DNA from: Candidatus Omnitrophota bacterium
Lineage (GTDB): Bacteria; Omnitrophota; Omnitrophia; Omnitrophales; Aquincolibacteriaceae
Reading direction: 5' to 3'
Assembly (NCBI GenBank): GCA_018883425.1
Contig: VFQY01000012.1
Coordinates: forward strand, 1-40,190
Length of the DNA: 40,190 nt
Below are positions 35,752 through 40,190 of the stretch, piece after piece. The notes below the pieces were generated by a model, which searched no databases, was not told where the DNA came from, and saw nothing but the letters and a program-made list of their open reading frames with translations. Within the stretch, counting starts at the first letter, position 1; each line of letters opens with the position of its first letter. The position numbers and the translations under genes are program-made.

Positions 35752-38700
35752 ATGACTCCTCAATCTCAGCCTTGGATGCGAACCGCCGCTTTTTTTACGG
35801 CCCTATCCCTGCTCGTCAATACCGAGCCGGTTCAGGCGTCTGTGCTTCAGGCAACGCCCGCCGCGCCCGCGTTCAGCATCCCGGCAGAACTAGGATTCCT
35901 GCAGGAATCTTTCGACGGACCTTCGGGCAAAACGATTTACTTTATCCAGGATGCCCACAGTTCACTTGAGGCCCAAAACCACATCGCCGCTATCATCCGC
36001 CGGCTCACGGAGAAGCATGCCGTTCAAACCGTCTTTGAGGAGGGCTATGAAGGCCCTGTTCCCACAGAGCGTTTTTTTGGGTTCATTCGAAACGCCCCGC
36101 TCCGGCTGAAAGTTTCGTCCTTTTTCCTCGACAAACTGCGCATCGGAGGCGCCGAGTTCGCCCACATCAACCGCACCCGTGAATTCAAACTGATCGGGGC
36201 CGACGACCTTCAGACTTACCGTAAAAATATCGCCGCCTACCGCAAAGCTTCAAAGACGGCGGCACGCGCCGATGAAGAGCTGAGCCAAATTCTCCAGGAA
36301 CTGCGCTCGCTCGCGGCCCGGCGTTTTTCTCAAGCCCTCCGGGATTGGCTCGAGGCACGATCGCGCCTTGAACGCCGGCAACTTGATCTGGCGGACTTTC
36401 TCGGCCGCAGCTGGAAACTGCTCGAAGAGCACGGGCTGAAGAACAAGGAATCGGAAAACTTTCCTTTTCTCGCCTCGCTCCTCAGACCCTCGGATAAAAA
36501 AAATCCGCCGCTCGACACGGCTGAGGTCTTTCGGGAGATTTACGCTCTCGACAAAAAAATTTCCGCCCTGTTGCTCAGCTCTGAAAAAGACCGGCGTCTT
36601 TTTGAGGCTCTGGAAGCCTTCACCCTGCTCAAACGCCTCAACCGTTTAGAAGTTTCCGCGGAAGAATATGCGGCGGCCCGCGGCGTTCTCGAAAATATCA
36701 GCACACGGGAAACGGCAGACTTCATCGCCCGGGAAAGCTCTAAATCGGTGGTTTTTTCGAACACCTGGGAAGAAGCTTTGATTCATGCCTCGGCCTTTTA
36801 CACGCTTGCGGGTCAGCGCGACGAGGCCGTCGAAAGAACGCTTCGCAATTTCCTCAAGCAGACCGGAGAACAAGAGGCCGCGCTGGTTTTCGGGGGGTTC
36901 CACAAGCAGTCTCTGCTCGCCGTCATGCGCCGTCTGGGGTTCTCCGTCCGCGTCATCAGCCCGGCCATTTCAAGCCCTGATCCTCGCCACGAGAAGTACT
37001 ATCACGAACTGATGTCGCGAGGAAGCCATCCTTATGAACGAGCGCTGATGCCCGCGCTTTCCCAGGCGGCCCGGGCGGCCCGTCAGGCTTCCCTTTACGT
37101 CGAGACGGGAGGGGGGGGCAGGCCGTGGGTACTAGCCGTTTTGAAAATCTTGCTGCAAGAGCCGGAGATTCCCCTGTCACAGCTGGCAAGAATGCTGGAA
37201 AAAAATCCCCGCCGAGTTCTTCCGAGCACCGCGCTTCGATCCGAATTGAGAAACACCGCCTCTTACGATACGGCCCCGCCGAGAGAGTTCCGGATTTCAC
37301 TTCCTGTCGGCGGAAAAATCCGCATCTTCGGTTTTGATACCCAAACAGCTGTTCTTGCCGAGGTGATGAGCCTCCGGCAAAACGCAACCCGGCGCGCGAG
37401 AAGCGGCAGGCTCAAAGAGCCGCGCCTCGAAACAGAAATTCGAATTTCGGCGCCGCCCGAAATCCTCATGATCGAAGGCCGCGACTGGCTGGATTTTTTA
37501 GAAACTTACGAAAGCAGATCCGGTACTCTCGAGGCACAGGGACACTGGAATAAGACCGCTCTTAGAGAACTTTATGAGACGCTCAGACTCAGAACTGAGA
37601 AGCGTTTTATGAACAAAATCTTCCGGATGCCCCAAGACGCAAAAATTCATCTTTTTGATCTGAAGACCCGGCGGCATGCCGAACTCGAAATCCTCGGCCT
37701 GCAAAAAAATCCCGAGACTGCGGATCTTAAGATCATCCCGGATTCATCCAGCATGCGTTCCAACCTTTTCAGGGTCGAAACGCTCTACCTTCCCCCTTCG
37801 GTCACGCCCTCAGCGGTGCGCTCCGAGCTTCGCTCCCGTGAAACGCAGCCGGAGGGATTCCCTTCTCAAGATCTCACAGAGGGAGAAAAAAGACTCATCG
37901 CCGAATCCGAGACGCGGGGCTCCACCCGCGAAACCAGCCGACGGAATAAGATTTGGCTCTTTGGGGAAGTGGAAATGCAGCAGGCGCTTTTTGATTTCAA
38001 AGGCACCGCGTCGGAAAACTCCGTGATACCGCCCTCCCTCTACCGCGACAAGAAAATTCTGATCATGCCGGGCTACGGTAACCTGCCTTTTCTTTTCAAA
38101 CTGCTGGGGGCACGCGAGGTCGTGGCCAGGGATCTTGATCCCGCAACTATCGCCTGGCAGAAATTAAAAAATAAAACAGCACGGCTCAATCATCCGTACT
38201 GGCTTTTCCTCACAGAAACAAGCTCCAGTATGAGGCGGACAACTATGCGGACAACCTGGCTGGATACTTTGGATACCCCGGTTCAACCTGAAGAATCCCT
38301 GCCCGGCATGCGTTTTGAGGTCAGCGATATCCTTCAACCGTCTCAGAACGAGGAAAAGTTCGATCTCATCGTGTCACCGTATCTTTTCTCGGTCACGGGA
38401 GGTCTTGAAACAATAGCCGAATGCGATAAGGCTCTGGCAAATTTACGCCGAGCTCTCGCCCCCGGCGGAAAAATCATCATCACGCCCGGTAGCGCTGATG
38501 ACCTCGACGACTTCGACCCCGGAACAGCACTCAGGGTTTATCAACTTTCGCTCTGGATTGACAGCAAGGCCAACGAAGGCTGGCGTGTCACCTACAGCCG
38601 TCGACAGACTTTCCATAGTTTTTTTGGGGGCAGACAGGTCCCCGCGTCCTTTGCTTTTCTTTCCCCCCCCGACACGGATCAGGCCGAGACAATCGCGTCT

Positions 38701-40190
38701 AAGCGCGACGCGCTGGCAAAATTCTTCGAAAGCCTTAGCCTCGTCCTCCCTGCATTTCCCGGGGATTTCAGTTACACGCATGCCGTCCGCTATCAAATTA
38801 AGAAGCCCTGGGAAATCGCGGAACATTTGAGTTTATTAGGCTATGCTGCCTATCCTGGCCTGGTTCAAAAATTCATCGATCAAGGCTTTATGATGGGTGA
38901 TGAAGAAACGCTGACCGCCGGAGGCAAACAGCTTTATTCCCGGACTCTATGGATTGATCCCGAGAATCCTAACCTGCGTTTCGTTAAACTCCTCGAACTC
39001 ATCGGCCGCGGCTCGAACGCGGTCGAAGGCGTCACGGATGAGCAAGACACAGCGGCCGCCGTTGCGCAAGCCGCTGAACTTGCGGGCGGAGCGAGCCGGG
39101 AACCTGGCCCTCAGATCCTCGCCGTCGAAAATCTCCATGCATGGAAAAACTTGGCTTCTGCGGCCGCCCAAATGGATGAGCGCCGGCGCTCGGAATTACG
39201 CTCAAACCCTCCCGGGGCCTCGTCAGAGAAGAGAACCCCTCAACTTCCCGAGGATGAACTTCGGCACATGCGCTCCAGCCTTAGGCATTACCTCAGGCGT
39301 CAGCTCGGAGAACGCGGCCGTTCGATAGATCCCAAGCGTTACGAATTCATCTCAGACATTCTTCCTTACCGCATCCTGGCTGCCAAGGACGCAGCCGGGA
39401 AAATTCTCGGTTTCGCCTTCGGCAAGAAAGGCAACCGCCACATGCATTGGATCGAGACCCAGGAGGGCGAAGAGCCTGACGGATTCATTTACGAAAAGAA
39501 TGAGCACGGCCTGCGGATCACGACCTACAAAAAGCAAGGAGACAGCCATTATATCGAGGACGTCCTCGTGCTCGGCCGATTTGGAGACACTTACCGTCTC
39601 AAGATCGAGGAATCCGCTGGCCAAACGATGAACCAATCGGTCGAATATCACAACTGGATGCCCAGCTACATGCTGACCGAGCCGAGGGAAGTCAGGGTGC
39701 TTTCCGCCGAGCTTGGGTCGCAGCTATTCGCCGGCATCTCAAAATTTGTTCAGCCACACTCGCGTCTCGTTCTCGCGCCCGGTATGGACCCCGAATCGCG
39801 CATGACATACTGGCCCAGCAGCCAGGGGGGGGACGTTCTCTCCCGTGAGAGAGTCTTCGGCGGGCTGGACCACGAGGGGGTCGATCTGGCGCATCTGCGC
39901 TTCAGAGATGGGAAACAAAAGCTCTTAGGCGCCGGCACCCAGATTCCTTCCCTCGTGAATGAAAGGGGCGTCATCCAATGGACGTTTGAGGACAATGTCC
40001 GCTCAACAGCTATTATTTTGAGCAGCATCACCTTACCTGTAGGTTCAAAAACCTATTTCATTCCAAGAAACCCCGACGACGTCGCGAAGATCACTTTCGG
40101 CCCGAACGGCCAACCTCAGTTTCCTGAAGGAGTCGAATACGACACCGAGAGTATCCAGGGTGAAATATACCGCGTGGCCTTCGTCTACAC
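35752..40190 (+). CDS. Giant secreted multidomain protein (TraB/ChaN-like, methyltransferase-like, M23-like), partial
   Basis: The frame stays open from ATG 35752 to the window edge (at least 1479 codons; I translated it in full). A signal peptide (RTAAFFTALSLLVNTEPVQA) begins it. Residues about 60-400 resemble the TraB/ChaN/PrgY-like fold: IYFIQDAHSSLEAQ, VFEEGYEGP (96-104), KLIGADDLQTY and LVFGGFHKQSLLAVMRRLGF (histidine 384). Residues about 765-930 look like a Rossmann methyltransferase: KILIMPGYGNLPFLFKLLGA, EVVARDLDP, EKFDLIVSPYLFSVTGGL and RRALAPGGKIIITPGS. Residues about 1360 to the edge look like an M23 peptidase start, with LDHEGVDLAHLRF (H1374, D1378, the HxxxD zinc pattern) and AGTQIPSLV. 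The motif RSELR occurs at 496, 690 and 1146 between the domains. Omnitrophota encode such giants; the function is unknown and domain calls are by eye. Confidence 0.85.
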   Translation, partial: MTPQSQPWMRTAAFFTALSLLVNTEPVQASVLQATPAAPAFSIPAELGFLQESFDGPSGKTIYFIQDAHSSLEAQNHIAAIIRRLTEKHAVQTVFEEGYEGPVPTERFFGFIRNAPLRLKVSSFFLDKLRIGGAEFAHINRTREFKLIGADDLQTYRKNIAAYRKASKTAARADEELSQILQELRSLAARRFSQALRDWLEARSRLERRQLDLADFLGRSWKLLEEHGLKNKESENFPFLASLLRPSDKKNPPLDTAEVFREIYALDKKISALLLSSEKDRRLFEALEAFTLLKRLNRLEVSAEEYAAARGVLENISTRETADFIARESSKSVVFSNTWEEALIHASAFYTLAGQRDEAVERTLRNFLKQTGEQEAALVFGGFHKQSLLAVMRRLGFSVRVISPAISSPDPRHEKYYHELMSRGSHPYERALMPALSQAARAARQASLYVETGGGGRPWVLAVLKILLQEPEIPLSQLARMLEKNPRRVLPSTALRSELRNTASYDTAPPREFRISLPVGGKIRIFGFDTQTAVLAEVMSLRQNATRRARSGRLKEPRLETEIRISAPPEILMIEGRDWLDFLETYESRSGTLEAQGHWNKTALRELYETLRLRTEKRFMNKIFRMPQDAKIHLFDLKTRRHAELEILGLQKNPETADLKIIPDSSSMRSNLFRVETLYLPPSVTPSAVRSELRSRETQPEGFPSQDLTEGEKRLIAESETRGSTRETSRRNKIWLFGEVEMQQALFDFKGTASENSVIPPSLYRDKKILIMPGYGNLPFLFKLLGAREVVARDLDPATIAWQKLKNKTARLNHPYWLFLTETSSSMRRTTMRTTWLDTLDTPVQPEESLPGMRFEVSDILQPSQNEEKFDLIVSPYLFSVTGGLETIAECDKALANLRRALAPGGKIIITPGSADDLDDFDPGTALRVYQLSLWIDSKANEGWRVTYSRRQTFHSFFGGRQVPASFAFLSPPDTDQAETIASKRDALAKFFESLSLVLPAFPGDFSYTHAVRYQIKKPWEIAEHLSLLGYAAYPGLVQKFIDQGFMMGDEETLTAGGKQLYSRTLWIDPENPNLRFVKLLELIGRGSNAVEGVTDEQDTAAAVAQAAELAGGASREPGPQILAVENLHAWKNLASAAAQMDERRRSELRSNPPGASSEKRTPQLPEDELRHMRSSLRHYLRRQLGERGRSIDPKRYEFISDILPYRILAAKDAAGKILGFAFGKKGNRHMHWIETQEGEEPDGFIYEKNEHGLRITTYKKQGDSHYIEDVLVLGRFGDTYRLKIEESAGQTMNQSVEYHNWMPSYMLTEPREVRVLSAELGSQLFAGISKFVQPHSRLVLAPGMDPESRMTYWPSSQGGDVLSRERVFGGLDHEGVDLAHLRFRDGKQKLLGAGTQIPSLVNERGVIQWTFEDNVRSTAIILSSITLPVGSKTYFIPRNPDDVAKITFGPNGQPQFPEGVEYDTESIQGEIYRVAFVY

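What the first reader, a model, noticed from the sequence alone, without database searches (positions are those of the whole stretch)
35752..40190. Giant secreted protein combining TraB/ChaN-like, methyltransferase-like and M23-like parts
Seen: one uninterrupted frame of more than 1479 codons with a signal peptide and three regions of different fold-like character. Known: TraB/ChaN, Rossmann methyltransferases and M23 peptidases are each common, but I know of no described protein that joins them behind a signal peptide. Inference: this could be a cell-surface or secreted polyprotein specific to this lineage, possibly one that is cut into separate units.
Basis: partly seen in the sequence, partly recalled or inferred. 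Interest (0 to 1): 0.75.

Follow-up and report, generated by a model that had tools for sequence, protein, structure and literature searches.

The report
Bacterial polyproteins with genome-specific cutting words
The long gene is one of about 28 in this uncultured bacterium that share a signal peptide and a hydrolase-like head and then carry many unrelated enzymes, mostly separated by an exact five-letter amino-acid word that differs between lineages, which suggests that the bacterium makes exported proteins as giant precursors to be cut apart.

Summary
The frame is real: 1479+ open codons (35752 to the contig end) with a signal peptide. It is not a lone fusion. It is one of about 28 head-bearing frames in this genome; 54 of 58 relatives searched have the head (frames up to 35,113 aa). 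Between the parts lies the exact pentapeptide RSELR: 62 copies in 27 giant frames (0.26 expected), 55 different DNA spellings, single-letter variants near chance. In relatives the word is retuned by genome (RSE[VML]R, R[SA]E[AV]R, R[SAT]E[KT]R; other families GFGA or A[AS]SLG) and follows the genome, not the head. None of 121 words falls inside a Pfam domain. The cargo is cytosol-type: sigma factors, Fic, methyltransferases, and in one relative a four-enzyme NAD salvage set. Complete giants end in a related tail with -SA/-AA. Best reading: exported polyproteins cut at the word. The architecture is shown; cutting and the protease are inferred. No held paper describes it.

The parts
35752..40190 (+). 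giant frame, 1479+ codons, open at the contig end
35752..35838 (+). signal peptide (aa 1-29, VQA|S); cleavage site predicted by eye
   Evidence: sequence; 23 of 23 paralogues have an h-region
35851..37026 (+). TIKI/TraB/ChaN-like head domain (aa 34-425)
   Evidence: paralogues and relatives, conservation, AF2 pLDDT 94.4, weak Pfam and Foldseek matches
35950..36903 (+). putative active site: D67-x-H69, E97, R356, H384; invariant in all aligned heads
   Evidence: spacing as in TIKI endopeptidases
37237..37251 (+). RSELR word 1 (aa 496-500)
37252..37818 (+). cargo segment A (aa 501-689), no family found
37819..37833 (+). RSELR word 2 (aa 690-694)
37834..39186 (+). cargo segment B (aa 695-1145) with a methyltransferase-like domain; recurs in giants of G005, G010, G041
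39187..39201 (+). RSELR word 3 (aa 1146-1150)
39202..40188 (+). cargo segment C (aa 1151-1479+), M23-like motif DHEGVDLA; cut by the contig end

Best explanation
The gene is one member of a large paralogous system of exported polyproteins. A signal peptide sends the chain across the inner membrane. A TIKI-superfamily hydrolase domain forms the head. Independent enzymes and regulators follow as cargo, separated by an exact short word (RSELR here) lying in variable linkers, and a tail domain ending in -SA/-AA closes the chain. A factor common to the whole genome recognises the word and cuts there, releasing the cargo as separate proteins outside the cytoplasm. The protease may be the heads acting in trans or a separate enzyme. 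Shown: signal peptides, head, word, its genome tuning, exclusion from domains, cargo types, tail. Inferred: that the word is cut, where, by what, and where the cargo acts (periplasm, surface, or a host or prey cell).
For: RSELR occurs 62 times in 27 giants, 0.26 expected, one-substitution neighbours near chance. 55 of 62 copies are spelled differently in DNA, so the constraint is on protein. It is absent from 47 other frames of 450+ aa, and genome-wide a codon pattern for it is found 60 times against 7 for the reversed control; in-frame copies checked lie in long frames. Unbiased word counts in relatives return R[SA]ExR, GFGA or A[AS]SLG as the top or a leading word. 0 of 121 words lie inside Pfam domains, 14.4 expected, 0 of 10,000 rotations. 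The fourth letter follows the genome: overlap 0.75 within a genome even for heads under 30% identical, 0.34 between genomes for heads at least 38% identical; 0 of 2000 permutations. The head keeps the TIKI active-site pattern in every row, and a TIKI member is a proven sequence-specific endopeptidase (PMC6254334). The cargo is cytosol-type enzymes; in G041 the cargo NadE is 40% identical to a separate free-standing NadE and keeps its main catalytic motifs. In the tail model the word sits in a low-confidence linker before a folded domain.
Against: No cleavage product, proteomics or biochemistry was available. Head-bearing giants in outgroup families (G048, G053, G057) show no word, so the head predates or does not require it. 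Uniform words behind very different heads argue against each head cutting only its own chain. Words closer than 60 aa are common in some genomes (38 of 106 gaps in G041), giving short pieces if all are cut. The head's kinship to TIKI proteins is below formal significance by sequence and fold.
Confidence: 0.6

Rival explanations
1. The head is a cis-acting autoprotease: each head cuts the words in its own chain, as the protease domain does in MARTX toxins.
For: Head at the N-terminus of the giants with conserved active-site residues; a superfamily member is a sequence-specific endopeptidase.
Against: The word is identical behind heads about 25% identical within one genome and differs behind heads 40-50% identical between genomes; heads exist without any word.
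Confidence: 0.15
2. The word is not cut; it is an attachment or sorting tag (sortase-like, glycan or S-layer cross-link) or a docking site for a chaperone or export ATPase.
For: An exact short peptide with sharp borders and unconserved flanks fits any recognition peptide; Omnitrophota giants are thought to form surface coats.
Against: Many internal copies, always between domains, with free-standing-type enzymes between them; sorting tags are normally single and terminal (own knowledge).
Confidence: 0.17
3. The giants act intact as multidomain surface proteins (adhesins or predation weapons), the view in the literature, and the word is a flexible spacer.
For: Published reading of Omnitrophota giant ORFs (PMC10066038, PMC12057145).
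Against: A spacer does not need an exact pentapeptide with near-chance variants; the cargo found is cytosol-type enzymes rather than adhesins.
Confidence: 0.07
4. The word acts during translation (ribosome skipping, 2A-like), not by proteolysis.
For: Exact nascent-chain words with free flanks occur in 2A peptides (own knowledge; not tested here).
Against: Quite different words (RSELR, GFGA, AASLG) hold the same place in sister families; there is only one signal peptide per giant, so skipped products would stay in the cytosol.
Confidence: 0.01

Closest known systems
Giant ORFs of Omnitrophota (Velamenicoccus archaeovorus and relatives; PMC10066038)
   Same: Same phylum, same kind of frame, poorly conserved interior, suspected export.
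   Different: Described as uncharacterised, adhesive or predatory; the passages read mention no common head, linker word, tail or polyprotein processing. The bioRxiv preprint of West-Roberts 2023 is not held and could not be checked.
MARTX multi-effector toxins (e.g. PMC6254334, PMC6315884)
   Same: One long exported chain delivering several independent enzyme domains cut apart between domains; one MARTX effector is itself a TIKI endopeptidase.
   Different: No RTX or cysteine protease domain found; N-terminal signal peptide; dozens of paralogues per genome; a genome-tuned linker word; bacterial-type cytosolic enzymes as cargo.
Viral polyproteins
   Same: Short protease words between independent mature proteins, retuned in each lineage (own knowledge).
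   Different: Cellular, about 28 head-bearing frames per genome, exported, cargo differs between members; cutting not yet shown.
TIKI/TraB/ChaN/Ere superfamily
   Same: Acidic-x-H, Glu about +28, Arg, His about +28, in order and spacing.
   Different: Long helical insertion, QDAH at the first site, no significant database hit.

Membership tests
TIKI/TraB/ChaN/Ere superfamily (head) | acidic-x-His, Glu at about +28, Arg, His at about +28, in order | tested here: met
   D34, H36, E64, R323, H351 (head numbering) invariant in the alignments of 86 and 58 heads; RRSP E3900-x-H3902, E3930, R4001, H4030
TIKI/TraB/ChaN/Ere superfamily (head) | significant profile match to a superfamily family | tested here: inconclusive
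   sub-threshold ChaN matches in 5 of 58 heads, best E 1.4e-4; single weak DUF5694 and Erythro_esteras hits; best ChaN hits in relatives are in long head-type frames, none over the cut-off; hhalign to TraB/GumN P=0.029 in the right register
TIKI/TraB/ChaN/Ere superfamily (head) | shared fold | tested here: inconclusive
   Foldseek lists 3B55 (Ere-like, E 0.097) and 2G5G (ChaN, E 0.45), none at E<=0.001
SAM-dependent methyltransferase (segment B) | Pfam methyltransferase over its cut-off | tested here: met
   Methyltransf_11 25.0 bits, cut-off 21.2; only the C-terminal half of the fold matches
M23 peptidase (segment C) | HxxxD plus downstream HxH zinc ligands | tested here: inconclusive
   HEGVD present; the contig ends before any HxH; relative L033 has HTGVD, YTH, HVH; no Pfam hit
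Processed polyprotein | recurrent recognition word between independent domains, never inside them | tested here: met
Processed polyprotein | cleavage at the word | not testable with these tools
   needs proteomics or biochemistry
MARTX toxin | RTX repeats and cysteine protease domain | tested here: not met
   no such domains in Pfam scans of the giants examined

The most novel reading that the evidence does not exclude
Omnitrophota run a cellular polyprotein economy: dozens of exported precursors per genome, cut by a genome-tuned word-reading protease (possibly their own TIKI-type heads), which releases whole sets of cytosol-type enzymes, even a NAD salvage pathway, into another compartment or another cell.
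Probability: 0.35. Interest if true: 0.95.

Novelty: categorically new. Interest (0 to 1): 0.87.

Why it matters
The giant genes of Omnitrophota are among the longest known and have no accepted function. A shared head, a genome-specific word and a shared tail turn them from an oddity into a parsable system: they can be split at the word into mature proteins, annotated piece by piece and tested. If cutting is confirmed, it would be a cellular counterpart of viral polyproteins on a genome-wide scale, with a new, lineage-tuned protease specificity and a possible route for delivering enzymes to a host or prey.

Tried and rejected
Assembly or fusion artefact: rejected, the same architecture is in dozens of independent genomes. 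DNA-level repeat or recombination site: rejected, 55 of 62 words are spelled differently. C66 right-end tail as the missing 3' end of this gene: considered because it resembles the tail of the nearest relative, rejected because its first 12 bases overlap the end of C124 in the L033 frame. The window's last 19 bases occur nowhere else in the genome, so the 3' end remains unknown. PDB sequence search with the protein or head profile: nothing meaningful. Tail fold search: Rossmann-like neighbours only, none significant. YbaP single-sequence hhalign: nothing.

Full report
Observation. The window is the whole of contig C131 of a 2.18 Mb genome in 156 contigs. The frame at 35752 is open for 1479 codons to the contig end; composition gives about 10^-24 for that. 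The start is a plausible Sec signal peptide; 23 of 23 head-bearing paralogues tested have the same hydrophobic stretch before the head.

It is a family, not a single gene. The first 450 residues match about 28 distinct frames in the same genome, mostly at the start of frames of 1,000 to 4,380 aa, and occur in 54 of 58 relatives searched. The largest frames found have 23,964 aa (G005) and 35,113 aa (G041). A scan of 84,980 species genomes with the closest head subfamily returned 69 loci, all named Omnitrophota.

The head. Across 86 heads from some 25 genomes QDxH, E, R and GG[FY]H are invariant or nearly so. In head numbering these are D34-x-H36, E64 (+28), R323 and H351 (+28). In the TIKI-superfamily endopeptidase RRSP the essential residues are E3900-x-H3902, E3930 (+28), R4001 and H4030 (+29), and in 3B55 H85 and E113 (+28) (PMC6254334). 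TraB/GumN proteins have H, E, R, H in the same order. AlphaFold gives a confident model (pLDDT 94.4). Foldseek lists 3B55 and ChaN 2G5G among weak hits, and sub-threshold Pfam matches go to ChaN and, singly, to DUF5694 and erythromycin esterase. I conclude that the head is a distant member of this superfamily with an intact active-site pattern; no single test is significant on its own.

The word. RSELR stands at residues 496, 690 and 1146, between head, segment A, the methyltransferase segment and the M23-like segment. In 27 giant frames of this genome (59,233 aa) it occurs 62 times where 0.26 are expected, while single-letter variants occur near chance level. The 62 copies use 55 DNA spellings. 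Position profiles fall to near zero on both sides, with a mild excess of Ala, Ser and Pro before and Ser after. 47 other frames of 450+ aa have none; these include frames that are not genes. Genome-wide, a codon pattern covering part of the spellings gives 60 hits against 7 for the reversed control, and in-frame hits checked lie in long frames.

Relatives tune the word. Unbiased counting in other genomes returns the same kind of word: RSELR (G015), RSE[VML]R (G012, G013, G016), R[SA]E[AV]R (G041), R[SAT]E[KT]R beside RSE[LM]R (G007), [RK][AST]E[LM]R (G005), R[SA]ELR (G031), GFGA in family f2 (23 against 0.32 expected in G027) and A[AS]SLG in f7. Outgroups G048, G053 and G057 show none. For giants with at least three sites, the fourth-letter spectrum overlaps 0.75 within genomes (head identity median 24%) and 0.33 between genomes; restricting to similar heads between genomes does not raise it (0.34); 0 of 2000 label permutations reach the difference. 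So the recogniser looks like a property of the genome.

Cargo. Pfam finds sigma-70 regions 2-4, Fic, CheR and other methyltransferases, PALP, histidine phosphatase, PPDK and GAPDH pieces, GNAT, helicases, HATPase, FHA, GT2, alpha/beta hydrolase, PfkB and NUDIX. One G041 giant carries epimerase, NDK, response regulator, glutamine-dependent NadE, NadD-like, nicotinamidase-like and NAPRTase domains, i.e. four steps of NAD salvage. The NadE cargo keeps the CN-hydrolase residues and SGGIDS and is 40% identical to the free-standing NadE of the same genome; by eye NadD has one changed motif His and NAPRTase looks partly eroded. None of 121 words lies within a Pfam domain, against 14.4 expected (best stretches only, taken from the Pfam tables by hand).

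Tail. Complete giants end in -SA, -AA or another x-A: 16 of 17 here and 28 of 30 in relatives by my count, against 6 of 61 other large frames; Fisher p about 7e-20. Many last segments (about 140-390 aa, starting at the last word) are homologous to each other across genomes; the model (pLDDT 84.7) has a low-confidence N-terminus containing the word and then an alpha/beta domain whose nearest folds are Rossmann-like, none significant. The window gene is cut before its tail.

The window's own cargo. Segment B has a methyltransferase match over the cut-off and recurs in giants of G005, G010 and G041; the G005 giant C51 shares head (46%) and methyltransferase segment (39%) in the same order. Segment C matches one paralogue, L033, at E 2e-8 in a pairwise search; L033 has HTGVD, YTH and HVH, the pattern of M23 enzymes, but no Pfam match.

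Mechanism. The simplest account is an exported polyprotein cut at the word. Cutting, the protease and the destination of the cargo are inferences. Because words are uniform behind very different heads, either all heads act in trans with one specificity or a separate protease reads the word.

Literature. Omnitrophota giant ORFs are known but functionally obscure (PMC10066038; PMC12057145; PMC11573180). None of the held papers containing RSELR concerns this, and none joins polyprotein with Omnitrophota. A 2023 preprint on giant genes (cited) is not held, so priority cannot be fully excluded.

Noticed in passing
L098/L099 (G041:C44), giant of 10,566 aa: One polyprotein carries NadE, NadD-like, nicotinamidase-like and NAPRTase domains, a NAD salvage set, beside a separate free-standing NadE in the same genome.
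   Followed up: partly
L032:9886-17082 (-): A signal-peptide-bearing giant with sigma-70 region 2, 3 and 4 modules in different word-bounded segments.
   Followed up: no
complete giants, e.g. L034:14459-15103 (+), L050:639-1505 (+): Nearly all complete giants end in -SA/-AA after a shared tail domain; this might be a C-terminal processing or export signal.
   Followed up: partly
L033:1-12 and L032:17922-17933: A 12-base in-frame overlap (SVDD) suggests that the L033 giant continues from C124 onto the right end of C66.
   Followed up: yes
L098/L099, around words at aa 5546, 5585, 6853, 6892, 7385, 7424 of the giant: A near-identical linker repeat (SSEFKVPSLKLN...TAEGG) lies between pairs of words; it looks like an interspersed DNA repeat inserted in frame.
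   Followed up: no
L055 (C25): A giant whose match crosses an in-frame TAA and whose frame does not end in -xA; possibly a decayed member.
   Followed up: no
L034:5884-8028 (-); L049:1251-4403 (-): Head-bearing frames without any RSELR word, the first only 715 aa; possible stand-alone heads.
   Followed up: no
G027 giants (L102, L120-L124) and G036/G039/G032 giants (L101, L125-L127, L100, L132, L135): Unrelated words GFGA and A[AS]SLG take the place of RSELR in two sister families. A small residue (S/A) occurs within or just before all three word classes and at the natural C-termini, which may mark the cut.
   Followed up: partly
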